Shown here: positions 30,029 to 43,675 of the stretch, piece after piece
How the letters are laid out: every line of letters starts with the position of its first letter
Position numbering within the stretch: position 1 is the stretch's first letter
NCBI RefSeq assembly: GCF_000381265.1
Contig: NZ_KB906257.1
Coordinates: forward strand, 62,001 to 126,000
Reading direction: 5' to 3'
DNA: 64,000 nucleotides
Source of the DNA: Curvibacter lanceolatus ATCC 14669
GTDB taxonomy: Bacteria > Pseudomonadota > Gammaproteobacteria > Burkholderiales > Burkholderiaceae_C
Program-made: the position numbers and the translations under genes
Notes under the pieces: model-generated
Databases searched by the model: none
What the model was told of the DNA's origin: nothing
The model's input: only the letters and a program-made list of their open reading frames with translations

Positions 30029-30215
30029 GTTGTCTCCATCGTCTTGCGGGGTGGTTCGCTCACCGTAGGCAGGCGGTGGCAGGGTGTCAATGCGGCCATC
30101 CCTGAGGTTGCTGAACCTGAGTGACAGGGGGTGGCTTGCCTGCCAGGGGGCCTCGCAGGCAAGATCGTCGGCCAGGCGGGCACCAGCGCACGCCCTCACC
30201 GATGGGGACACAGGT

Positions 30216-30956
30216 ATGACGCAGACACAACAGCCACGCGGCGTGGCCTTGGTGATCGGGGCGGGCGACGCCACCGGCGGCGCCATTGCGCGGCGCTTTG
30301 CGCGCGAGGGCTACATCAGCTGCGTCACGCGCCGCACGGCCGACAAGCTGCAGCCCCTGGTCGATGCCATCCGGGCCGAAGGCGGGCAGGCCCACGGCTA
30401 CGCCAGCGATGCGCGCAAGGAGGACGAGGTGCAGGCCTTGTTCGAGCGCATCGAGGCCGAGCATGGGCCCATCGAGGTGCTGGTGTTCAACATCGGTGCC
30501 AACGTGCCCTGCAGCGTGCTTGACGAGACGGCGCGCAAGTACTTCAAGATCTGGGAGATGGCCTGCTTCAGCGGCTTTCTGAACGCGCAGGCCGCAGCGC
30601 GGCGCATGGTGCAGCGCGGGCGCGGCACCATCCTGTTCACCGGGGCCACGGCGGCCCTGCGCGGTGCGGCGGGCTTTGCAGCCTTTGCGGGCGCCAAGCA
30701 TGCGCTGCGCGCCCTGGCCCAGAGCATGGCACGTGAGCTGGGCCCACAAGGCATCCATGTGGCCCATGTGGTGGTCGATGGCGCGATCGACACCGAGTTC
30801 ATCCGCAGCAACTTCCCCGAGCGCTACGCCCTCAAGGCGCAAGACGGCATCCTCAACCCCGAGCACATCGCCGACAACTACTGGCTGCTGCACCAGCAAC
30901 CGCGCGACGCCTGGACCTTCGAGCTGGACCTGCGGCCCTACATGGAGCGCTGGTAG
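30216..30956 (+). CDS. Atypical SDR-family protein lacking the catalytic tyrosine
   Basis: A 246-residue Rossmann protein with a changed glycine motif (IGAGDATGGAIA) and the NAD(P) core of short-chain dehydrogenases. The catalytic YxxxK reads Phe157-AGA-Lys161, so the proton-donating Tyr is missing, and the usual Ser is in FTGATAAL. The protein otherwise keeps full length and fold, with RELGPQGIHVAHVVVDG conserved. It may use another donor or be a non-canonical reductase; I recall close relatives with the same change in proteobacteria. Just downstream begins the oxidoreductase promoter region. Confidence 0.85.
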   Translation: MTQTQQPRGVALVIGAGDATGGAIARRFAREGYISCVTRRTADKLQPLVDAIRAEGGQAHGYASDARKEDEVQALFERIEAEHGPIEVLVFNIGANVPCSVLDETARKYFKIWEMACFSGFLNAQAAARRMVQRGRGTILFTGATAALRGAAGFAAFAGAKHALRALAQSMARELGPQGIHVAHVVVDGAIDTEFIRSNFPERYALKAQDGILNPEHIADNYWLLHQQPRDAWTFELDLRPYMERW

Positions 30957-31274
30957 GCCAGGGGCACCCCCACACCCTTCAGACGGGGCTGGCGCACCGG
31001 GCGCGATGGCGTGCGCCGCCCCTGAGGCGGGGCGCCGCCAGCTATTCACAACGGGCATACATCGCTCGGAGTTTTTCATTATTCAGGGCGCAAGGCCCTG
31101 GCTAAAGTGGCCGCGCACCGCTGCAGTCGGTCGTGCGGGCCTGCACGGACGTCCACAGCGGAGAGCTGTCGCCCGGGCCCCTCTCTTTGCATGAGCCCGG
31201 GGCAGCTTGGCTGTTCTGTCGGCCCCCGTGCCGATCCCATCCCTGTGTGCCTGTTCCATCTAGAGAGTCGATTC
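30957..31274 (+). promoter_or_regulatory. Promoter and long leader of the ferredoxin oxidoreductase operon
   Basis: No gene is visible in these 318 bases. The block 31057-31108 aligns without a gap to 36562-36613 in front of the aminomuconate operon: ATA-ATCGC, then TTTTCATTAT, CA and GCGC are shared, as is a -10-like TAAAGT (31103-31108; TACAGT in the other copy). This gives 25 identities in the first 35 columns. The -35 is poor, as expected for an activator-dependent LysR promoter. A leader of about 160 bases follows, with a GC stem CCCGGGC/GCCCGGG at 31172-31201. Confidence 0.7.
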
Positions 31275-34200
31275 ATGTCTGCGAAGCAAGACCCCAACAG
31301 CCCGTTCACCCGTGAAGAAGGCGTCGTTCACCTGGGGGGCATTGACGCCCTGGTGCGCCTGACGCTGGACCAGATCCGTACCGACCAGCGCCGTGGGCTG
31401 CGCACCGGCATGTTCGTGTCGGGCTACCGGGGCTCGCCGGTCGGCATGCTCGATGCCGCCCTGATCAAGCGGCAGAAGCTGCTGCTGGAGCACAACATCC
31501 GCTTCGTCGACGGGCTCAACGAAGACCTGGCGGCCACGGCGGTCTGGGGCACCCAGATGCTGGGGGCGGTGGGCCAGCAGAAGTTCGATGGTGTCACCGG
31601 CCTGTGGTACGGCAAGGCCCCCGGGGTGGACCGCAGCGGCGACGCGCTCAAGCACGCCAACTACACCGGCATGGGCAAGAACGGCGGGGTGCTGGCGGTG
31701 GTGGGGGACGACCCCAGCTGCAAGTCGTCTTCCCTGCCCAGCCAGAGCGAGCCCATGCTGTTCCACCTGGGCATGCCCTCGCTGTACCCGGGCACGGTGC
31801 AGGAGATCCTGGATCTGGGGCTGCACGGCTACCAGATGTCGCGCCTGTCCGGGCTGTGGGTGGGCCTCAAGATGGTCACCAATGTGGCCGATGGCAGCGG
31901 CACGGCCCAGGTCTCGCCCGAGCGCCTGAACTTCGTGCAACCCGACCTCGAGTTCGACGGTGTGCCCTTCACGCCGCGCATGAACCTGGGCATGAACGTG
32001 CGGGCCGAGGCCCTGGAGATGGAGCATTCGCTCTACACCCAGCGCCTGGAACTGGCCAAGCGTTACGCCCGGGTCAACAAGCTCAACAACGTGGTGCTGC
32101 CCAACCGCGATGCCTGGCTGGGCATCATGACGGCGGGCAAGACCTACAACGACCTGATGCAGGCCCTGCGCGAGATGGGGCTGGACGAGGCCGCCTTGAA
32201 GCGGCACGGTGTGCGCATTCTCAAGATGGGCATGTTGTTCCCCATGGAGCCCACCATCGTGCGCGAGTTCGCCGAGGGCCTGGAAGAACTGTTCGTGATC
32301 GAGGAAAAGCGCCCGTTCCTGGAGATGTTCGCCAAGAACGTGCTCTATGGCAGCGCGCGTGCGCCCCGCATCGTCGGCAAGCTCGATGAGCAGGAGCAGC
32401 CCTTGTTGCCGCCGGGCGGCGAGTTCGAATCCGATGTGATTGCCCGTGCCCTCTACAAGCGTCTGTCACAGAAGGCCCGCATCGAATCGGCCGAAGCCTG
32501 GCTGCAGCGCCTGGACGCCATCCACCTGCGCGAAGACCCTGCCACCGCAGGCCGCACCGCCTGGTTCTGCTCGGGCTGCCCGCACAACAGTTCCACCGTG
32601 GCCCCGGACGGCAGCGTGGTGTCGGCAGGCATCGGCTGCCACACCATGGCGATGTGGATGGACCGCAACGTGGTCATGGGCACCCACATGGGGGCCGAAG
32701 GGGCTCAGTGGATCGGCATGGCGCCCTTCACCGAGGTGCCGCACATCTTCCAGAACATGGGCGACGGCACCTACTTCCACTCCGGCAGCCTGGCCCTGCG
32801 TTACACCGTGTCGGCCGGTGTCAACATCACCTACAAGCTGCTCTACAACGCCCACACCTCCATGACCGGCGGGCAGGACATCCAGGGCAGTCACCCGGTG
32901 GCCAACGTGGTGTCCGAACTGCTGGCCAACGGGGCCAGCAAGGTGCTGATCACCACCGATGACCCCGCCAAGTACAGCGGCGTGGGCTTGGCCGGCGGCA
33001 CCGAGGTCTGGCACCGCGATCGCCTGGATGAGGCCCAGCGCACGCTGGCCGCCGTGCCGGGCACCACCGTGCTGATCCACGACCAGGAGTGCGCCGCCGA
33101 ACTGCGCCGCCTGCGTGGCCGTGGCCAGCGGCCTGAACCGGCCCAGAGCGTGGTCATCAACGAGCGGGTGTGCGAAGGCTGCGGCGATTGCGGCGAGCAG
33201 TCCAACTGCATGAGCGTGGAGCCCATCGAGACCGAGTTCGGCCGCAAGACGCGCATCCACCAGGGCTCGTGCAACAAGGATTTCTCCTGTGTCGACGGCT
33301 TCTGCCCCTCGTTCCTGACCGTCACACCCGCCCCCGAAGCGGCGGGCGCCGCACCCGTGAAGAAAAAGAAGAAGGGCCGCATCCCCGCCATGGAGCATGC
33401 CCTGCCCGAACCCGAGCTCAAGGTGCGGGGCGACTTCGGTGTGCACATCATGGGCATCGGCGGTACGGGTTCGGTCACCGTGGCCTCCACCATCGCCAAC
33501 GCGGCCCGCATCGAGGGCAAGCATGTGATCGGGCTGGACCAGACCGGCCTGGCGCAAAAGGGCGGGGCCGTGATCTCGGACCTGAAGATCACCGCTGCAC
33601 CGTTCCATGGCGCCAACAAGATCACCGATGGCTGTGCCGATCTGTACCTGGGCTTTGACATCCTGAACGCCACCGACCCCAAGAACCTGGACAAGTGCCA
33701 TCCCGAGGTCACGGTGGCGGTGGTCTCCACCACCCGCACGCCCACCGGGCAGATGGTGTCCGACCGCCATGTCCAGTTCCCCGAGCTGGACCCGCTGATG
33801 CAGGGCATCCAGCGCGTCAGCCGTGCGGCCGACAACGTCTTCCTGGACGGCCAGGGCCTGGCCGAAGGCCTGTTTGCCGACAGCATGGCCACCAACATCT
33901 TCATGGTGGGGGTGGCCTACCAGGCCGGTGCCTTGCCCCTGGCGGCGGCCTCGATCGAGGCCGCCATCGTGCAGGCCGGCGTGGCCGTCAACATGGGGCT
34001 GGCCGCCTTCCGCTGGGGCCGTCTGGCCGTGAGCCGGCGCGATCTGGTCGAGGCCGAGATCGCGCGCCTCAACCCTGTGGCGGCTGCGGGCAGCGTGGTC
34101 ACCTTGCACCGCCCGGTGCGCCTGAGCGCCTCGGCCCAGAAGATGGTCGATGCCTGCGGCGCCGATGGTGAGTTGCTGCGCCTGCTGCAGCGCCGGGTGC

Positions 34201-34826
34201 CGGACCTGATCGACTACCAGAACGAGGCCTATGCCCGCCGTTACACCCAGTTCCTGCGCCAGGTCGCAGGCCTGGAGCGCCAGGCCGTGCCCGGCAGCAC
34301 CCTGCTGACGGAAGCGGTGGCCCGCAACCTCTACAAGCTCATGGCCTACAAGGATGAGTACGAGGTGGCCCGCCTGCACACCGCGCCCGAGTTCCTGGCC
34401 CGTCTGGAGTCCGAGTTCAAGCCCGGCCACCGCCTGCAGTTCCACCTGGCCCCGCCGCTGCTGTCCAAGCGTGATCCGGTCACCGGTCATCTGATCAAGC
34501 GGGCCTACGGACCCTGGGTGTTGACCGCCTTCAAGTGGCTGGCCCGCTGCAAGGGCCTGCGTGGCGGCGCGCTGGACATCTTCGGCAAGACCGAGGAGCG
34601 GCGTCAGGAGCGCCAGGCGATCGAAGACTACTGCCGGCTGATGGCGGATGTGCTGAGCCGTCTGCGCCCGGACAACTTCGACACGGCCTTGAAGCTGGCC
34701 CAGTTGCCCGATGGCATCCGGGGTTACGGGCATGTGAAGCACCGCAACCTCGAAGCCGCCCGCGCAGAACAGGCGCGCCTGCTCAGTGAGTTCAACCGAC
34801 CCGCACCGCTGCGCCGTGCCGCCTGA
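31275..34826 (+). CDS. Indolepyruvate (2-oxoacid) ferredoxin oxidoreductase, fused subunits
   Basis: A 1,183-residue fusion of the alpha and beta subunits of indolepyruvate:ferredoxin oxidoreductase, which converts a 2-oxoacid, CoA and oxidised ferredoxin to acyl-CoA and CO2. N-terminal pyrimidine-binding domain (about 1-400); CSGCPHNSS (Cys432, Cys435); TPP-binding region GIGCHTMAMWMDRN to NMGDGTYFHSG; a cysteine-rich 4Fe-4S part (Cys633, Cys636, Cys639, Cys645 and more to about 680); a lysine-rich linker; the gamma-like domain GIGGTGSVTVAS (about 730); and a C-terminal DUF6537-like part (about 975-1165). The ATG at 31275 is preferred over upstream in-frame starts. MaoC follows after 44 bases. 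The natural substrate may be an aryl pyruvate or another oxoacid. Confidence 0.9.
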   Translation: MSAKQDPNSPFTREEGVVHLGGIDALVRLTLDQIRTDQRRGLRTGMFVSGYRGSPVGMLDAALIKRQKLLLEHNIRFVDGLNEDLAATAVWGTQMLGAVGQQKFDGVTGLWYGKAPGVDRSGDALKHANYTGMGKNGGVLAVVGDDPSCKSSSLPSQSEPMLFHLGMPSLYPGTVQEILDLGLHGYQMSRLSGLWVGLKMVTNVADGSGTAQVSPERLNFVQPDLEFDGVPFTPRMNLGMNVRAEALEMEHSLYTQRLELAKRYARVNKLNNVVLPNRDAWLGIMTAGKTYNDLMQALREMGLDEAALKRHGVRILKMGMLFPMEPTIVREFAEGLEELFVIEEKRPFLEMFAKNVLYGSARAPRIVGKLDEQEQPLLPPGGEFESDVIARALYKRLSQKARIESAEAWLQRLDAIHLREDPATAGRTAWFCSGCPHNSSTVAPDGSVVSAGIGCHTMAMWMDRNVVMGTHMGAEGAQWIGMAPFTEVPHIFQNMGDGTYFHSGSLALRYTVSAGVNITYKLLYNAHTSMTGGQDIQGSHPVANVVSELLANGASKVLITTDDPAKYSGVGLAGGTEVWHRDRLDEAQRTLAAVPGTTVLIHDQECAAELRRLRGRGQRPEPAQSVVINERVCEGCGDCGEQSNCMSVEPIETEFGRKTRIHQGSCNKDFSCVDGFCPSFLTVTPAPEAAGAAPVKKKKKGRIPAMEHALPEPELKVRGDFGVHIMGIGGTGSVTVASTIANAARIEGKHVIGLDQTGLAQKGGAVISDLKITAAPFHGANKITDGCADLYLGFDILNATDPKNLDKCHPEVTVAVVSTTRTPTGQMVSDRHVQFPELDPLMQGIQRVSRAADNVFLDGQGLAEGLFADSMATNIFMVGVAYQAGALPLAAASIEAAIVQAGVAVNMGLAAFRWGRLAVSRRDLVEAEIARLNPVAAAGSVVTLHRPVRLSASAQKMVDACGADGELLRLLQRRVPDLIDYQNEAYARRYTQFLRQVAGLERQAVPGSTLLTEAVARNLYKLMAYKDEYEVARLHTAPEFLARLESEFKPGHRLQFHLAPPLLSKRDPVTGHLIKRAYGPWVLTAFKWLARCKGLRGGALDIFGKTEERRQERQAIEDYCRLMADVLSRLRPDNFDTALKLAQLPDGIRGYGHVKHRNLEAARAEQARLLSEFNRPAPLRRAA

Positions 34827-34870
34827 AGGGCACGTTGCCCCTCTCATTTCATCTTCATCGAAAGCGATCC

Positions 34871-35308
34871 ATGAACGACCTCCAAGGCCATGATTTCGAA
34901 GACCTGCAAGCCGGCATGAGCGCCAGCTTTGCCAAGACCATCACCGAGGCCGACATCGTCTTGTTTGCCGGCGCCTCGGGCGACAACAACGCCATGCACA
35001 TCAACGAAGAGTTCGCCAGCGCCACGCCCTTCAAGGGGCGCATCGCGCACGGCATGCTCACGGCCAGCGTGATCTCGGCCGCCATTGCCGGCAAGCTGCC
35101 CGGGCCGGGCACGGTCTACCTCTCGCAAAGCCTGCGTTTCAAGGCCCCGGTGCACCCTGGCGACACAGTCAAGGCCACTGTGACTGTCAAGGAGTTGTTT
35201 CCTGAGAAACGACGGGTGAGCTTGACCACCGTCTGCACGGTCGCCGGCAAGGTGGTCATCGAGGGCGAGGCGCTGGTCATGCCCACGGCGCGCCACCAGC
35301 CTGCCTGA
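34871..35308 (+). CDS. MaoC-family hydratase
   Basis: A 145-residue single hotdog domain. The hydratase 2 motif is present: FAGASGDNNAMHINEEFA has the Asp/His pair of (R)-specific enoyl-CoA hydratases, followed by GRIAHGMLTAS. Such enzymes hydrate trans-2-enoyl-CoA to (R)-3-hydroxyacyl-CoA. It lies 44 bases after the oxidoreductase and is probably co-transcribed with it, suggesting that it acts on the CoA ester made there or one derived from it. The exact substrate is unknown. Confidence 0.9.
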   Translation: MNDLQGHDFEDLQAGMSASFAKTITEADIVLFAGASGDNNAMHINEEFASATPFKGRIAHGMLTASVISAAIAGKLPGPGTVYLSQSLRFKAPVHPGDTVKATVTVKELFPEKRRVSLTTVCTVAGKVVIEGEALVMPTARHQPA

Positions 35309-35442
35309 CGGGGAGGGCGCGCAGGGGGCGCCGCCCCCTGCATTTGCTTACCTGGAGAAGGCCGTAACACCTCTAAGCTGCGGGGCCACTGCGTCGCAGT
35401 GTCTGTCTCTTCCGGACAGATCCATTCAAGAGGTCATGCACG

Positions 35443-36396
35443 ATGCGGAACTTCAAACAGTCGCGCCTCTCGTTGGCGCGCTCACTCAAACTCTCCCAAC
35501 TGGTGGTGTTCGAGGCGGTGGTGTCGGCCGGCTCGATCCTGGCCGCCTCGCGCGAGCTGGCCCTGACCCAGCCTGCCGTCAGCAAGTCGCTGCACGAGCT
35601 GGAGCGCTACCTGGACCAGGATCTGTTCGTGCGCAGCAAGAAGGGCGTGGCGCTGACGGAGTTCGGCCGCCTGTTCGAGCGCCACGCCCGCACCATGCTG
35701 CTGGAGCTGCGTTGCCTGTCCGACGGGCTCAACGCCTGGCAGATGGGGGTCTCGGGCCATGTGGTGGTGGGCACCTTGATCACCGCCTCGGCGGTGCTGG
35801 TGCCCGAGGCCATCCACCGCCTGCACGAGGCGGCACCCGACGTGGAGGTCGAGGTGCGGGTGGGCACCCACAGCACGCTTTTCCCGGCGCTGACCCGGGG
35901 CGATCTGGATGTGGTGGTGGGCTACCTGCCGCGCGACAACGAGCCCATGCCGGGCTTGGTGCAGCCCGACCGTCTGCACCATCAGATGCTTTACGACGAG
36001 GCGCTGTGCGTGGTGGTTGACCGTCGGCACCCGCTGGCGGCGCGGCAAGGCCTCAGCCTGCGCGAGTTGCACGACCAGGAGTGGATATTGCCCACCCCCG
36101 ATTCGGTGGCCTACAGCGCAGCCTGCGCCATGTTCGACAGCGAGAAGCTGCCCCTGCCGGCGCGGGTGGTGTATTCGGTCTCGGTGCTCACCAACATGGG
36201 CTTGCTGCGCCGCCGGCCCATGGTGGCCCTGATGCCGCATCTGGCGGCCCAGCGCTTCGAAGAGTCGGGGCTGCTGTCGCGGCTCTCGCTGGGGCCGCTG
36301 GAGGCCTTTGCCGCGGTGGGCTACAGCGTCTCATCGCATCGGCAGCCCAGCGCGGCCTGCCAGCGTTTCATCGAGGCCTTGCGCGACTCGGTCTGA
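35443..36396 (+). CDS. LysR-family regulator of the catabolic island
   Basis: A 317-residue LysR protein: winged helix at about residues 12-75 (QLVVFEAVVSAGSILAASRE, then TQPAVSKSLHELERYL) and an effector-binding domain, of the GbpR/CbbR-like type with LVFEAV. It lies between the oxidoreductase-MaoC pair and the aminomuconate operon, all on the plus strand. The shared element before both operons makes this gene the obvious candidate to bind it. No copy of the element is evident before its own start (35309-35442). The inducer may be a pathway intermediate such as 3-hydroxyanthranilate. Confidence 0.9.
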   Translation: MRNFKQSRLSLARSLKLSQLVVFEAVVSAGSILAASRELALTQPAVSKSLHELERYLDQDLFVRSKKGVALTEFGRLFERHARTMLLELRCLSDGLNAWQMGVSGHVVVGTLITASAVLVPEAIHRLHEAAPDVEVEVRVGTHSTLFPALTRGDLDVVVGYLPRDNEPMPGLVQPDRLHHQMLYDEALCVVVDRRHPLAARQGLSLRELHDQEWILPTPDSVAYSAACAMFDSEKLPLPARVVYSVSVLTNMGLLRRRPMVALMPHLAAQRFEESGLLSRLSLGPLEAFAAVGYSVSSHRQPSAACQRFIEALRDSV

Positions 36397-36561
36397 GGGC
36401 GCGCGGGCCAGCCCCGGGCCTTCCCGGGTCATGGAGGCCACTGGCTGCCGCAACCCCTCATGTCATCGATCGGATCGGCCTGCGTCCACCGGCCTGCGCA
36501 GGCCGCTGGCCGTGCGGCCCGGATCCGGTGTGGGGCGGGTTTTCCGCTATTCCCGGACGCT

Positions 36562-36613
36562 ATAGATCGCGCCTTTGTTTTCATTATCCAAAGCGCGGCC
36601 CGCTCCCTACAGT
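36562..36613 (+). promoter_or_regulatory. Promoter/operator of the aminomuconate operon, paired with 31057-31108
   Basis: This block carries ATAGATCGC, TTTTCATTAT, CCAAAGCGC and a -10-like TACAGT (36608-36613), each at the same relative position as in front of the oxidoreductase gene (constant offset of 5,505 bases). Promoter and operator spacing is conserved, so both are probably bound by the same LysR-type activator. The transcription start would be near 36620, about 20 bases before the TTG start codon. Confidence 0.7.
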
Positions 36614-36641: not shown

Positions 36642-38129
36642 TTGTCCTACCCATTCATGCTGCCAGCCTCGCTGGCCTCCCTGCGCAATTACGTCGATGG
36701 CGAGTTCGTCACCACCGAGCGGCAGTTCGACAACATCAGCCCTTTGCATGGGCGCCTGCTGGGCCGAGTCCATGAAGCCGATGCGGCCCTGGTCGACCGC
36801 GCGGTGCAGGCGGCCCGCAAGGCCCTGGAAGGCCCCTGGGGCCGCAGCACGGTGGACGAGCGCGCCGCCTGGCTGCACAAGGTGGCCGATGTCATCGAAC
36901 GCCGCTTCGATGAGTTCGTGGCCGCCGAGGTCGCCGACACCGGCCGCCCCGTGACCCAGGCCCGCAACCTGGATGTGTTCCGCGCCATCGCCAACCTGCG
37001 CACCTTCGCCGATCTGGGCAAGGTGGCCCATGGGGAATGTTTTGAAAGCCGCACGGCCCAGGGCGAGGCCCTGCTCAACTACACCGTGCGCAAGCCGCTG
37101 GGCGTGGTGGCCAGCATCTCGCCCTGGAACCTGCCCATCCTGTCGATGACCTGGAAGGCGGCCCCCGCCCTGATCTGCGGCAACACCCTGGTCGTCAAAC
37201 CGTCCGAGGAGACCCCTTCTTCGGCCACCTTGCTGGCCGAGGCCTTCCATGAGGCCGGTGTGCCCCCTGGCGTGTTCAACCTGGTGCATGGCTTTGGTGC
37301 CAACTCGGCCGGGTCCGCCATGTCGGCCCACCCTGGCATTGACGGCATCACCTTCACCGGCGAATCGCGCACCGGCTCGACCATCATGAAGGCCGTGGCC
37401 GATGGCGTGAAAGAGGTCTCGTTCGAGCTGGGTGGCAAGAACGCCGCCATCGTGTTTGCCGACTGCGATTTCGACGCGGCGGTGGAGGGGGTGTTGCGCT
37501 CGTCCTTCGCCAACACTGGCCAGGTCTGCCTGTGCTCCGAGCGGGTGTATGTGGAGCGGCCGATCTTCGAGCGTTTTGTGCAGGCCCTGAAGGCCGGGGC
37601 CGAAAAGCTGCGCATCGGCTACCCCGACGAGCCCGGTGTGGACATGGGCTCGCTGATCTCGCACAAGCATCGGGCCAAGGTGCTCTCGTACTTCAAGCTC
37701 GCCGTGGAGGAGGGCGCCACCGTGGTCACCGGCGGCGGCATTCCCCACTTCGGCGACGAGCGCGACGACGGTGCCTTCATCCAGCCCACCATCTGGACCG
37801 GTCTGCCCGACACGGCGCGCTGCGTGCGCGAAGAGGTGTTCGGCCCGGTGTGCCACATCGCCCCGTTTGACACCGAGGAAGAGGTGATGCGCCGCGCCAA
37901 CGACTCCAACTACGGCCTGGCGGGCACCCTCTGGACCACCAACCTGCAGCGCGCCCACCGCGTGGCGCGCCAGTTCGACACCGGCATCGTCTGGGTCAAC
38001 ACCTGGTATGTGCGGGATCTGCGCACGCCGTTCGGTGGCACCAAGCTGTCGGGCCTGGGCCGTGAGGGCGGGCGCTGGTCGCTCGACTTCTACTCCGAGG
38101 TCAGCAACATCTGCATCAAGGTGGGCTGA
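36642..38129 (+). CDS. 2-aminomuconic 6-semialdehyde dehydrogenase
   Basis: NAD-dependent aldehyde dehydrogenase of 495 residues that oxidises 2-aminomuconate semialdehyde to 2-aminomuconate. The catalytic pair is Glu262 (SFELGGKNA) and Cys296 ([10 protein letters not shown]), and [20 protein letters not shown] is in place for NAD. It resembles 2-hydroxymuconic semialdehyde dehydrogenases, but the operon context supports the amino substrate. The start is TTG 36642: GGAGG at 36632-36636 is five bases upstream, while the first in-frame ATG (36657) is 20 bases from it. It is the first gene of the operon. Confidence 0.9.
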
Positions 38130-38131
38130 GC

Positions 38132-38533
38132 ATGCAGCGGCACAACCTCAGCTCGCCGCGCCTGGCGGCGCCGCGCTTTCGCTACACACCCTGTGTGAAG
38201 GTCGGGCCGCTGGCCTGGCTGTCGGGCATGGTGGCCCTGGACCCCGCCACCGGCCAATTGGTGCCCGGTGGCGTGGGCCCGCAGACCCAGCGCATCTTCG
38301 ACAACCTGGCGCTGGCCTTGCCCGATTACGGCTTGCACATGGCCGACCTGTGCATGGCCCGTCTCTACACCACGGTGTTCGAGGAGTTCGGCGCCATCAA
38401 CGAAGTCTGGGAGCGTCAGTTCGCCAGCCTCACACCCCCGGCCCGCACGGCCGTGGGGGTCACCCACCTGCCCCTCGGGGCCCTGGTGGAAATCGAATTC
38501 TGTTTTTACCCCGCCTCAGGAGCGCTGTCGTGA
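38132..38533 (+). CDS. RidA/YjgF-family protein (first copy in operon)
   Basis: A 133-residue RidA-fold protein with the conserved Arg in [20 protein letters not shown] and the C-terminal Glu that define imine/enamine deaminases. It starts two bases after the dehydrogenase stop and overlaps the next gene by four bases. A second RidA-type gene (40201-40650) is the better candidate for 2-aminomuconate deaminase, so this one may remove reactive enamines or act on a different tautomer. Its role is inferred. Confidence 0.85.
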
Positions 38534-39327
38534 ATCCCACATTGAAAGCCGTTGCGGACCTGCTCTGGTCCGCGGAACAAACCGGTGAGGCCGTGGCCCC
38601 GGTGCGTGAACAAATCGAGCAGGGCGCCCAGGGCGGTGACGTGCTGCAAGCGGCCTACCAGGTGCAGCAGGACCTGACCCAGCGCCGCCTGGACGCCGGT
38701 GGGCGACTGGTGGGGCGCAAGATCGGCCTGACCTCGGTGGCGGTGCAACGCCAGCTGGGCGTGGACTCGCCCGATTTCGGCGCTCTGTTTGCCGACATGG
38801 CGGTGGGTGATGGCGAAGAGATCGCCTGGTCGCGCCTGCAGCAACCCAAGATCGAAGCCGAGATCGCCCTGGTGCTGGGCCGTGACCTGCCGCACAGCCG
38901 CCACACCGTGGCCGACCTGATCAACGCCACCGCCTATGCCTTGCCGGCCCTCGAAGTGGTGGGCAGCCGCATCCGCAACTGGGACATCCGGCTGGCCGAC
39001 ACGGTGGCCGACAACGCCTCGTCCAGCCTGTTCGTGCTGGGCACCCGACCCGTGAAGCTGAGCCGCCTGGAGCTGGCCGATTGCGGCATGGTGATGGAGC
39101 GCCGCGGCGATCAGGTGTCGGTGGGCGCCGGCTCGGCCTGCCTGGGCAACCCGCTCAATGCCGCCGTCTGGCTGGCCAACGTGATGGCCCGCATGGGCAC
39201 GCCCTTGCGCGCTGGCGATGTGCTCATGACCGGTGCGCTCGGGCCCATGGTGCCGGTGCAGCGCGGCGATGTGTTCACGGCCCACATCGAAGGCCTGGGC
39301 TCGATCCGCGCCGTGTTCGAGCGATGA
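38530..39327 (+). CDS. 2-oxopent-4-enoate hydratase (2-keto-4-pentenoate hydratase family)
   Basis: A 265-residue fumarylacetoacetase-fold enzyme that adds water to 2-oxopent-4-enoate, giving 4-hydroxy-2-oxovalerate. Metal-site residues lie in [15 protein letters not shown], and KIGLTS is in the N-terminal half. It starts at GTG 38530, overlapping the RidA stop as GTGA, with AGGAG at 38518-38522. It is a paralogue of the decarboxylase that follows; the two usually form a complex so that the unstable dienol is channelled. The paralogues are told apart by length and by similarity to MhpD-type sequences. Confidence 0.88.
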
Positions 39328-39376: not shown

Positions 39377-40150
39377 ATGACAAAAATCGACAGCTTTGCC
39401 GCCGTGCTGGATGACGCGGCCCACCACGCACATGATGTGCAGCAATTCCCAGCCGGGCAGTTCGACCTCGACCAGGCCTATGCCATCCAGCGCGCCTCGA
39501 TCGAGCGCCGGGTGGCGCGCGGCGAGCACCGCATCGGCATCAAGCTCGGCTTCACCAGCCGCGCCAAGATGGTCCAGATGGGGGTGGACAACCTGATCTG
39601 GGGTTGGCTCACCAACACCATGATGGACGAAGACGGCGGTGTGGTGGACCTGAAGCGCTTCATCCACCCCCGCGTGGAGCCCGAGGTCTGCTTCGTCACC
39701 CGCCGCACCATCGATGCGCCCCTGACCGCACTTGAGGCGGTGGACTACCTCGACGCCGTGGCCCCGGCCATGGAGATCATCGATTCGCGCTACCGCAACT
39801 TCAAGTTCACCCTGGAGGACGTGGTGGCCGACAACTGCTCGTCGGCCGGCCTGGTGGTGGGGCCCTGGAGCCGTGATTTCTCCGGCCTGCCCAATGCCGG
39901 GGTGCGCATGCAGTTCGACGGTCGCGATGTGCAGGTAGGCTCCACCGCCGCCATCCTGGGGCACCCGTTGCGCTCCATCGTGCAGGCCTCGCGCCTGTTG
40001 CACCAGGCGGGCCTGAGCCTGCCCCCGGGCTCTCTGATCATGGCCGGTGCCGCCACCGCAGCCGAGGCCCTGACGCCCGGCCTGCACGTGCAGTGCCGCA
40101 TCGGCAGTGGCGCGAGCGCGCTGGGGCAGGTGGCTTTCAGCACACGCTGA
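39377..40150 (+). CDS. 4-oxalocrotonate decarboxylase
   Basis: A 257-residue paralogue of the hydratase with the [20 protein letters not shown] and [10 protein letters not shown] segments typical of DmpH/XylI-type vinylpyruvate-forming decarboxylases. It removes CO2 from 2-oxohex-3-enedioate formed by deamination of 2-aminomuconate, giving 2-oxopent-4-enoate, and probably forms a complex with the product of 38530-39327. Its ATG is 49 bases after the hydratase stop. Confidence 0.9.
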
Positions 40151-40200: not shown

Positions 40201-42216
<2,016 letters not shown>

Positions 42217-42328: not shown

Positions 42329-43675
42329 TTGTCCAAGTTGCCTACCCTCGATCTTGTCGAGGTCATCGAGCAGTCGCCGCTCGGCTTTCGCCGGCTGGTG
42401 ATCTTCTTTCTGATCTTTCTTTTCATCACCATCGAAGGTTTTGACACCGCCGCCATCGGCTTTCTGGTGCCTTCGATGGTCAAGGCCTTTCAACTGAGCA
42501 GCACCGAGGTGTCCGGCCTGTTTGCCGCCGGCATGGGGGGGCTGCTGCTCAGCTCTTTTGTGGGCGGCATGCTGTGCGATGTGTATGGCCGCAAACGGGT
42601 CAGCGTGATCAGCGTGCTGATCTTCGGCGTGGCCTGCATCGGCGTCGCCCTGTCCAAAGGCTACACCGAGCTGATGCTGTGGCGCTTTGCCACCGGTGCG
42701 GGCATTGGCGCGGCCCTGCCGGCCTTGTCCACCCTGTGCGCCGAGCTGACCCCGGCGCGCTCGCGCTCGACCATCCTGGCCATTGTCTTCAGCGGCTTTC
42801 TCACCGGCTCGGTGCTGGCCGGCCTGGTCACCGGGGCTTATCTGCACCAGGTGGGCTGGGAGGGCATCATGCTCATCGGTGGGGTGGTGCCGATTGCCAT
42901 GATCGTGTTGCTGGCGGCCTGGATGCCCGAGTCGCCGCGTTACATGGCCTTGCGCCCGCAACGGGCGGCTGAGGTGCCAGCGGCCATGGACAGGCTGTTT
43001 CCGGGGCGTGAGTTCACGCGCACCGACTTCGTCAGCCACGAGAACCCGCAGGCCGGCCCCAAGGCCCGGGTGACCGAGCTGTTCCGGGGGCGTTTTGCGG
43101 CGGTCACGCTGGCGCTGTGGGGCATGAACTTCACCGTGCTGCTGAGCTTCTACACCATTGCCAGCTGGCTGCCTTCGCTGCTGAACCTGGGGGGTATCGA
43201 GCCGGCCCAGGCCTCGAAGCTGGCCTCGAGCTTCCAGATCGGTGCCTTGATCGGTTCGGTGAGCACGGCGCTGGCCCTGCGCCGGCTGCGGCCCGCGGTC
43301 TGGTTGGGCACGGTGTTCGTCCTGGGGGGACTGACCACCTGGGGACTGACGGCGGCTGTGGGCACGCCCTGGTTTGTGCCGGTGACGCTGCTGAGCGGCT
43401 TTTGCGTGGCCGGGCCGGTGGTGGGCCTGCAGGCCGTGGCGGCTTCGGTCTACCCGACCTACATGCGGGGCGCCGGCGTGGACTGGGCCGCCACGCTGTC
43501 TCGCGTGGGCTCGCTGACCGGGGCCAGCATGGTGGGCATCATGATCAGCGGCGGTCTGGCCATGCCCGACATCTTCCGGCTGATGCTGGTGCCGATGCTG
43601 CTGGCTGCGGCCTGTGCCTGGTTTCTGCAGCGGGGCATGAGCGGGCCGGTGAACATGGGGGCGGGCGGGCATTGA
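42329..43675 (+). CDS. AAHS-family MFS transporter for an aromatic acid
   Basis: A 448-residue, 12-helix major facilitator. The AAHS signatures IEGFDTAAIGFLVPS in helix 1 and DVYGRKRVSV in the loop between helices 2 and 3 are visible. Relatives import aromatic acids by proton symport (PcaK, BenK). As last gene of the operon it probably takes up 3-hydroxyanthranilate or its precursor; the ligand is inferred. The start is TTG 42329 with AAGGAA at 42318-42323. Confidence 0.9.
   Translation: MSKLPTLDLVEVIEQSPLGFRRLVIFFLIFLFITIEGFDTAAIGFLVPSMVKAFQLSSTEVSGLFAAGMGGLLLSSFVGGMLCDVYGRKRVSVISVLIFGVACIGVALSKGYTELMLWRFATGAGIGAALPALSTLCAELTPARSRSTILAIVFSGFLTGSVLAGLVTGAYLHQVGWEGIMLIGGVVPIAMIVLLAAWMPESPRYMALRPQRAAEVPAAMDRLFPGREFTRTDFVSHENPQAGPKARVTELFRGRFAAVTLALWGMNFTVLLSFYTIASWLPSLLNLGGIEPAQASKLASSFQIGALIGSVSTALALRRLRPAVWLGTVFVLGGLTTWGLTAAVGTPWFVPVTLLSGFCVAGPVVGLQAVAASVYPTYMRGAGVDWAATLSRVGSLTGASMVGIMISGGLAMPDIFRLMLVPMLLAAACAWFLQRGMSGPVNMGAGGH

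What the first reader, a model, noticed from the sequence alone, without database searches (positions are those of the whole stretch)
31057..36613. Identical promoter architecture before the oxidoreductase-MaoC and aminomuconate operons
The block 31057-31108 and the block 36562-36613 align without gaps at a constant offset: 25 of the first 35 positions match, including TTTTCATTAT, ATCGC and GCGC, and both carry a -10-like hexamer at the same distance. A LysR gene lies between them. This shows directly that the fused ferredoxin oxidoreductase and MaoC belong to the same regulon as 3-hydroxyanthranilate ring cleavage, a link I do not know from the described pathways.
Basis: partly seen in the sequence, partly recalled or inferred. 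Interest (0 to 1): 0.8.

Follow-up and report, generated by a model that had tools for sequence, protein, structure and literature searches.

The report
One LysR promoter design, two operons
In a Curvibacter-type bacterium the genes that break open 3-hydroxyanthranilate and a neighbouring pair of genes for a large ferredoxin-linked enzyme and an enoyl-CoA hydratase carry the same kind of LysR-type promoter, which suggests they are switched on together and that the pair may finish the breakdown by an unusual CoA-linked route.

Summary
The 35-base match alone is modest evidence (2 of 500 shuffled pairs reach it); cross-genus evidence is strong. The layout TATTC-N9-ATA-N15-TTCATTAT-N20-(-10) precedes orthologous 3-hydroxyanthranilate (3-HAA) operons of other genera. 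A matrix from four such upstream regions alone picks the two promoters as the window's top two, the oxidoreductase promoter first; a model from seven non-Curvibacter sites ranks them first and second in the genome. The LysR gene between them is kin to LysR genes of other 3-HAA clusters. Most likely it activates both operons; binding is untested. The fused oxidoreductase (IOR) has its closest relatives outside Curvibacter (73%, 70%) in meta-cleavage-type clusters of two genera, and an IOR-family enzyme, EdcC, acts after meta-cleavage in oestrogen breakdown. Three Curvibacter genomes lack the DmpG-type aldolase found in 7 of 9 tested 3-HAA-operon genomes without this IOR, so IOR-MaoC may convert a shared 2-oxo acid to acyl-CoA; HpaI-type aldolases are a rival. 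New variant of a known kind.

The parts
31043..31059 (+). LysR-type box of the IOR promoter (TATTC-N9-ATA; T-N11-A), centre about -64 from the predicted start
31075..31082 (+). conserved TTCATTAT, centre about -37, probable second (activation) LysR contact overlapping the -35 region
   Evidence: role inferred
31103..31108 (+). -10-like hexamer TAAAGT of the IOR promoter
31275..34826 (+). fused 2-oxoacid (indolepyruvate-type) ferredoxin oxidoreductase, 1183 aa
   Evidence: PRK13030 1552.9 bits, cut-off 816; DUF6537 and POR over their cut-offs, TPP_enzyme_C 21.7 bits just under its cut-off of 21.9; GDG and CxxCxxC present
34871..35308 (+). MaoC-type enoyl-CoA hydratase (ATG start chosen by me; the ORF opens at 34835)
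   Evidence: nearest solved structure the (R)-specific enoyl-CoA hydratase 5cpg
35321..35341 (+). terminator-like hairpin between maoC and lysR
   Evidence: fold z-score -1.68, so weak; 7 such sites found in the region against 2.9 +/- 2.0 in shuffles
35443..36396 (+). LysR-type regulator, proposed activator of both promoters
   Evidence: role inferred
36548..36564 (+). LysR-type box of the 3-HAA operon promoter
36580..36587 (+). conserved TTCATTAT of the 3-HAA operon promoter
36608..36613 (+). -10-like hexamer TACAGT
36642..38129 (+). 2-hydroxymuconate/2-aminomuconate semialdehyde dehydrogenase (TTG start)
   Evidence: TIGR03216 846.4 bits, cut-off 693.25
38132..38533 (+). Rid-family protein 1
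38530..39327 (+). 2-oxopent-4-enoate hydratase-like protein
   Evidence: 341.7 bits against a cut-off of 350
39377..40150 (+). 2-oxo-3-hexenedioate decarboxylase-like protein
   Evidence: 215 bits against a cut-off of 350.55
40201..40650 (+). Rid-family protein 2, probable 2-aminomuconate deaminase
   Evidence: TIGR00004, below its cut-off; role inferred from the cluster
40643..41227 (+). 3-hydroxyanthranilate 3,4-dioxygenase
   Evidence: NF009763 234.4 bits, cut-off 220; TIGR03037 227.1, cut-off 145.95
41224..42216 (+). amidohydrolase, probable aminocarboxymuconate semialdehyde decarboxylase
   Evidence: PF04909; no NCBIfam match; role inferred from the cluster
42329..43675 (+). aromatic acid/H+ symport family transporter, possibly the last gene of the unit
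   Evidence: TIGR00895 262.5 bits, below its cut-off of 418.55

Best explanation
The LysR-type protein encoded at 35443-36396 activates two promoters of the same build, one before the 3-HAA operon (36642 onwards) and one before the IOR-maoC operon (31275-35308). Each promoter has a T-N11-A box centred near -64, a second conserved element (TTCATTAT) near -37, a poor -35 and a -10 at fixed distance, the usual anatomy (recalled) of an inducible LysR promoter in which the upstream box anchors the regulator and the -35-proximal site helps RNA polymerase once a pathway intermediate binds. Shown: the shared layout conserved across genera, its rank in the genome, and kinship of the LysR gene. Inferred: that this LysR binds both, and that a pathway metabolite induces. 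For the enzymes I propose (inferred) that the fused IOR oxidatively decarboxylates a 2-oxo acid that the 3-HAA and catechol meta-cleavage routes share (4-oxalocrotonate, 2-oxopentenoate or 4-hydroxy-2-oxovalerate) to an acyl-CoA with reduced ferredoxin, and that the MaoC hydrates the enoyl-CoA (for 2-oxopentenoate: crotonyl-type CoA to 3-hydroxybutyryl-CoA), so the products enter beta-oxidation instead of being split by an aldolase into pyruvate and acetaldehyde. Confidence: shared promoter type about 0.95; same LysR regulator about 0.8; IOR-MaoC as a lower arm of the 3-HAA route about 0.5; the C4-CoA version about 0.3.
For: Layout and statistics. Upstream regions of orthologous operons, taken by orthology alone, show it. 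Four of them (one genus) give a best-conserved 66-column block that is this element; its matrix scores the IOR promoter 29.0 and the 3-HAA promoter 24.5 bits, next best in the window -9.3, best in 24 control loci (468,025 bases, two of the loci overlapping) -1.7. Model R1 from seven non-Curvibacter sites of five genomes: first and second in the own genome (21.0 and 16.1 bits; third 12.6; 150 of 867 first-look candidates scored). Sites with 20 to 22 of 24 skeleton positions also lie before 3-HAA pathway genes on plasmids of Burkholderia arboris, Cupriavidus pauculus and C. metallidurans, and before a semialdehyde dehydrogenase operon of Polaromonas P1-6 in which no 3-HAA dioxygenase was seen in the 18.9 kb read. 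The LysR genes of the clusters group with the window's. In the genus-mate L019 the alignable stretch resumes at window 31038, at the promoter, while the upstream SDR gene is not found there. IOR relatives of 73% and 70% lie in meta-cleavage-type clusters of G183 and G252, the second with a 66% MaoC. EdcC precedent (PMC7793797, passages). DmpG-type aldolase over the cut-off in 0 of 3 Curvibacter genomes with this IOR. MaoC nearest to an (R)-specific enoyl-CoA hydratase.
Against: No binding or expression data. None of 29 other 3-HAA dioxygenase loci (28 genomes) has IOR-MaoC in the region fetched (a few contigs end within the span looked at, L056 and L063 most closely), so the linkage is seen only in Curvibacter, in 3 of 9 genomes of its genus by the LysR search. 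The operon keeps the decarboxylase- and hydratase-like genes of the ordinary route. HpaI-type aldolases pass their cut-off in all three Curvibacter genomes (3, 3 and 4 copies) and might split 4-hydroxy-2-oxovalerate. G183 and G252 have both this IOR and the DmpG-type aldolase, and G293 has a 3-HAA operon with neither. R1 found nothing in five plasmid loci, and the family-wide R1 search found no further strong site outside the training genomes and Curvibacter. Of eight other-genus operons with a readable upstream region five score 21 or more of 24, one 17 and two less; 17 is also the best of 26 control loci. R1 matches the IOR promoter only over model positions 32-66. The consensus sigma-70 scan found no promoter in the region.
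Confidence: 0.72

Rival explanations
1. Same regulator, but the IOR-MaoC pair serves another substrate: the IOR oxidises indolepyruvate or another arylpyruvate (its family name) and is co-induced because tryptophan breakdown feeds both indolepyruvate and 3-HAA.
Against: The only relatives above 50% found outside Curvibacter sit in meta-cleavage-type clusters; the own genome has a second, 47% IOR that could do the general task; a MaoC hydratase has no evident job on indoleacetyl-CoA (inference).
Confidence: 0.25
2. HpaI-type aldolases elsewhere in the genome finish the 3-HAA route in Curvibacter, and IOR-MaoC is an accessory or detoxifying side arm, for example removing accumulated 2-oxo acids.
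For: Three HpaI-family proteins over the cut-off in the own genome; of six genomes tested, the four without a DmpG-type aldolase (G000, G151, G153, G293) have HpaI over the cut-off and the two with one (G018, G147) do not.
Against: No such gene was seen in the 3-HAA or IOR operons; the three own-genome copies lie on contigs C1, C4 and C33, where R1 gave no match up to E 10.
Confidence: 0.3
3. The two promoters resemble each other because one was copied from the other or converged, but the regulators differ (for example another LysR acts on the IOR promoter).
For: LysR-type proteins are numerous here (139 first-look candidates in the own genome).
Against: The layout is conserved at fixed spacing beside related LysR genes in several genera, and these two are the only convincing sites found in the genome.
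Confidence: 0.12
4. Chance similarity of two AT-rich promoter islands in a GC-rich genome.
For: The 35-base match alone is reached by 2 of 500 shuffled pairs.
Against: 0 of 500 for 52 and 70 bases; 0 of 12,787,000 shuffled positions reach the matrix score; a cross-genus matrix ranks the IOR site first in the window.
Confidence: 0.02

Closest known systems
nba/onb-type 3-hydroxyanthranilate (2-nitrobenzoate) clusters, e.g. onb of Cupriavidus ST-14 (PMC5817917, abstract and passages seen)
   Same: 3-HAA dioxygenase, decarboxylase, semialdehyde dehydrogenase and deaminase genes; a putative regulatory gene (onbR1) inside the cluster; inducible
   Different: No IOR-MaoC operon in the passages seen; the promoter and the regulator's role are stated there to be uncharacterised
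EdcC of Novosphingobium (Caenibius) tardaugens oestrogen degradation (PMC7793797, passages seen)
   Same: IOR-family enzyme required after meta-cleavage, in a cluster with MaoC hydratases; proposed to decarboxylate the 2-oxo acid and add CoA
   Different: Steroid ring A substrate; its cluster has a repressor, EdcR (title and abstract start of PMC8700777 in the listing); sequence not compared here
COG4231 2-ketoacid ferredoxin oxidoreductase in BenR/AphS-regulated operons of Dechloromonas aromatica RCB and Thauera MZ1T (PMC6449761, outline and passages seen)
   Same: Predicted co-regulation of an IOR-type gene with meta-cleavage (aph) genes in Betaproteobacteria
   Different: Phenol/benzoate route, other regulators, no 3-HAA link and no MaoC in the passages seen
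CatR/ClcR/BenM-type LysR promoters (consensus AkACC-N5-GGTAT quoted in PMC6449761)
   Same: T-N11-A box
   Different: Other consensus (TATTC-N7-GAATA in the related genus here); the LysR gene is not divergent from its targets in this window

Membership tests
LysR-type regulated promoter | T-N11-A box near -65 and a second site near -35 at fixed spacing to the -10 | tested here: met
   the start point is predicted, not mapped
LysR-type regulated promoter | Binding by the cognate LysR protein | not testable with these tools
   needs EMSA or footprinting
LysR-type transcriptional regulator | HTH_1 plus LysR substrate-binding domain | tested here: met
PcaQ | TIGR02424 above its cut-off | tested here: not met
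   181.8 bits against 303.8
3-hydroxyanthranilate meta-cleavage operon (nba/onb type) | 3-HAA dioxygenase, semialdehyde dehydrogenase, amidohydrolase and Rid proteins in one gene run | tested here: met
   co-transcription not tested
3-hydroxyanthranilate meta-cleavage operon (nba/onb type) | DmpG-type 4-hydroxy-2-oxovalerate aldolase for the last step (frequent in relatives, not a defining feature) | tested here: not met
   six matches in the own genome, none over the cut-off (best 67.6 bits against 286)
Fused IOR family (PRK13030) | Model above cut-off over nearly full length | tested here: met
   1552.9 bits, cut-off 816, residues 10-1176 of 1183
EdcC-like meta-cleavage 2-oxoacid oxidoreductase | Acts on a ring-cleavage 2-oxo acid | not testable with these tools
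   only gene-neighbourhood evidence
(R)-specific enoyl-CoA hydratase (MaoC type) | MaoC domain, best solved relative an (R)-specific hydratase | tested here: met
   catalysis untested

The most novel reading that the evidence does not exclude
Curvibacter finishes 3-hydroxyanthranilate breakdown by a ferredoxin- and CoA-dependent lower route: IOR turns the 2-oxo acid left after ring cleavage and deamination into an enoyl-CoA, MaoC hydrates it, and the product enters beta-oxidation, replacing the aldolase/acetaldehyde step of the meta pathway, under one LysR regulator.
Probability: 0.4. Interest if true: 0.7.

Novelty: new variant of a known kind. Interest (0 to 1): 0.52.

Why it matters
It also supplies a cross-genus candidate binding motif for the LysR regulator of 3-HAA clusters; I saw no described motif in the listings (one search listed 20 of 26 papers, 20 of 660) or in the passages read.

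Tried and rejected
Chance similarity: rejected. A wider regulon in the own genome: R1 gave only the two sites above background; the third hit of the TTTTCATTAT pattern, on contig 8, points away from the gene beside it (which I read as DctP-like, from no call) and was dropped as chance; the pattern search for the box alone gave 21 hits with three mismatches besides the two exact ones, against 19 for the reversed pattern. IOR-MaoC next to 3-HAA genes elsewhere: not found. The upstream SDR gene (30084-30956) as part of the unit: rejected, not found in L019. PcaQ membership: below cut-off. The plasmid scan for close IOR relatives found 152 records, all under 60% identity, best 49.4%; the annotated one I opened, Rhodococcus DK17, has thiolase-type neighbours and was not used. 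Solved structures for the IOR: no hit by sequence at E 1e-5. The idea 'no aldolase at all in Curvibacter' was dropped after HpaI-type proteins were found. Structure prediction was not used because it would not decide between the readings.


Full report
What was checked. The window lies in a genome held at 6,832,523 bases, by its relatives of the Curvibacter lineage: Curvibacter gracilis ATCC BAA-807 (L018) aligns at 95.9% over 21 kb, and its match coordinates agree with those of same-genus genome G151; L019 likewise agrees with G153. The LysR protein is found in 3 of 9 genomes of the genus. The two blocks match as described: 25 of 35, 34 of 52, and 44 of 70 when extended upstream. Against dinucleotide shuffles of the two intergenic regions, 25 of 35 is reached in 2 of 500 pairs, 34 of 52 and 44 of 70 in none of 500.

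What it is. Both promoters share TATTC-N9-ATA-N15-TTCATTAT-N20-TA(A/C)AGT. The first element is a T-N11-A box (CTAT-N11-ATAC before the oxidoreductase gene, CTAT-N11-ATAG before the 3-HAA operon). With a start assumed seven bases after the -10, its centre lies at -64 and that of TTCATTA at -37, the usual places of the two LysR contacts (recalled general knowledge). The consensus sigma-70 scan found no site in the region, which fits a poor -35 but is no evidence for it.

Related loci. A search for 3-HAA dioxygenase found it in 30 of 399 family genomes. I fetched regions for all 29 loci of the 28 genomes other than the own and G151. None has IOR-MaoC in the stretch fetched; some stretches are cut by contig ends, most of all L056 and L063. 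Eight show an orthologous semialdehyde dehydrogenase gene with readable upstream DNA. Of these eight, five carry the layout at 21 to 24 of 24 skeleton positions (L022, L023, L024, L057, L058), one has 17 (L060), and two fall below 17 (L076, L080). L023 and L057 carry a further site (22 and 18) before a transporter gene. Of ten plasmid records found with the LysR protein I opened six. Their best scores are 22 (L175), 20 (L176), 17 (L177), 22 (L179), 22 (L180) and 18 (L174). L176, L177, L179 and L180 hold a 3-HAA dioxygenase gene; L175 holds the dehydrogenase-to-decarboxylase run but no 3-HAA dioxygenase was seen in the 18.9 kb read; L174 is not such a cluster. In 26 control loci the best score is 12 to 17, so 17 and 18 are not trusted. 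Model R1 found nothing in the five plasmid loci given to it (L180 was not given).

Independent tests. Model R1, built from seven sites of five genomes in two other genera, ranks the 3-HAA promoter first (21.0 bits, E 0.0016) and the IOR promoter second (16.1 bits, E 0.057, model positions 32-66 only) in the own genome, with the third at 12.6 bits; 150 of 867 first-look candidates were scored. Over 399 family genomes with stricter filters, 25 have a match at E 0.1 or better; the strong ones (46 bits and more) are the training sites themselves, then Curvibacter, then scattered partial matches of 18.5 bits or less. The sites for R1 had been located with a skeleton that the window helped to define, so I repeated the test without that step: 180 bases upstream of the dehydrogenase gene in four genomes of one other genus, chosen by orthology alone, were aligned; the best-conserved 66-column block was this element, and its matrix scored the IOR promoter 29.0, the 3-HAA promoter 24.5 and the next window position -9.3 bits; 24 control loci (468,025 bases; L055 and L145 overlap) reached -1.7. 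With a 13-site matrix, three of whose sites are the untrusted 17s and 18, no position among 12,787,000 shuffled ones exceeded 10.1 bits, against 41.7 and 49.5.

The regulator. The gene between the promoters has the two LysR domains and is not PcaQ by its cut-off. In a tree of 15 rows it belongs to a set of seven (window, C. gracilis, the Variovorax plasmid L174, L022, L023, L024, L058) with support 100/100; all 13 rows other than two unrelated LysR proteins stand together with support 86/82 under a midpoint root. Its closest relatives outside Curvibacter are on a Variovorax plasmid outside a 3-HAA cluster (59%, L174) and, in two pieces, on the Polaromonas P1-6 plasmid (73% and 54%, L175). A terminator-like hairpin separates maoC from lysR, but its fold is not exceptional (z -1.68).

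Why the oxidoreductase belongs. Among 250 family genomes (the two best first-look candidates of each were scored) and 13 chosen ones, only G183 (74%) and G252 (71%) outside Curvibacter showed an IOR above 50% identity (73% and 70% by tblastn). In G183 (L143) it lies between the oxalocrotonate decarboxylase gene and an SDR, acetaldehyde dehydrogenase and DmpG-type aldolase, in a cluster with catechol 2,3-dioxygenase, all over their NCBIfam cut-offs except the SDR. In G252 (L144; contamination estimate 6%) the neighbourhood has, by Pfam domain or similarity only, a glyoxalase-fold protein, an alpha/beta hydrolase, a dehydrogenase, hydratase- and decarboxylase-like proteins and a 66% MaoC. No MaoC relative was seen in L143. 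In print, EdcC, an IOR-family enzyme, is needed after meta-cleavage of 4-hydroxyestrone, its cluster has two MaoC hydratases, and its mutant accumulates what could be a pyridine formed from the cleavage product (PMC7793797, passages). Suvorova and Gelfand predicted a COG4231 gene in BenR/AphS-regulated operons with aph genes in Dechloromonas and Thauera (PMC6449761, passages). So the association of IOR with meta-cleavage is known in outline; its link with 3-HAA was not found in the searches.

The lower route. The DmpG-type aldolase model passes its cut-off in 9 of 14 genomes tested: in 7 of the 9 that have 3-HAA genes without this IOR (G018, G147, G237, G364, G148, G323, G255), and in G183 and G252, which have both. 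It does not in the three Curvibacter genomes, in G293, or in G269, where an aldolase fragment lies at a contig end. Clusters L024, L060, L175, L176, L177 and L179 carry both aldolase and acetaldehyde dehydrogenase. This fits a replacement by IOR-MaoC in Curvibacter. Against it, HpaI-type aldolases pass their cut-off in the own genome (3), G151 (3), G153 (4) and G293 (1), and not in G018 or G147, so they may be the replacement instead.

Mechanism proposed. Shown: shared, conserved promoter type; the two top places in the genome; kinship of LysR; neighbourhood of the close IOR relatives; nearest solved relative of the MaoC an (R)-specific enoyl-CoA hydratase. Inferred: LysR binding, induction by a pathway metabolite, and oxidative decarboxylation of a shared 2-oxo acid to acyl-CoA followed by hydration. 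Which of 4-oxalocrotonate, 2-oxopentenoate and 4-hydroxy-2-oxovalerate is used cannot be told from sequence; the (R)-hydratase kinship of the MaoC favours a short enoyl-CoA, hence 2-oxopentenoate, weakly.

Verdict. The finding is real and its regulon reading is supported by comparison across genera, though not shown by experiment. It is a new variant of a known kind: an ordinary LysR regulon that has taken in an IOR-MaoC operon in one lineage.

Noticed in passing
L143 1-19901 (G183) and L144 1-19901 (G252): Close relatives of the window's fused IOR (73% and 70%) sit inside meta-cleavage-type clusters; in L144 with a MaoC relative.
   Followed up: partly
L023 10196-10261 and L057 12041-12106: A second LysR-type site of the same layout precedes a transporter gene in the 3-HAA clusters of another genus (22 and 18 of 24).
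   Followed up: partly
L174 7848-7913: Variovorax SRS16 plasmid: a close LysR relative (59%) lies outside any 3-HAA cluster, near an AtuA/TctC-type operon with a weak site (18 of 24).
   Followed up: no
L175 8992-9886: The LysR relative in Polaromonas P1-6 matches in two separate pieces and has no listed gene there, so it may be interrupted.
   Followed up: no
G000 contigs C1, C4, C33: Three HpaI-type aldolases over the family cut-off in a genome without a DmpG-type aldolase over its cut-off.
   Followed up: partly
L145 12453-16059: G183 keeps 3-HAA dioxygenase, the amidohydrolase and one Rid gene beside what I read from its N-terminus as kynureninase (no call), without the other operon genes in that stretch.
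   Followed up: no
window 39377-40150 and 38530-39327: The decarboxylase- and hydratase-like proteins fall below the curated cut-offs of their families (215 of 350.55 and 341.7 of 350 bits), perhaps a separate 3-HAA-cluster branch.
   Followed up: no
L146 12875: Downstream of the second IOR gene of the own genome a 17 of 24 skeleton match occurs, the best of the 26 control loci.
   Followed up: no
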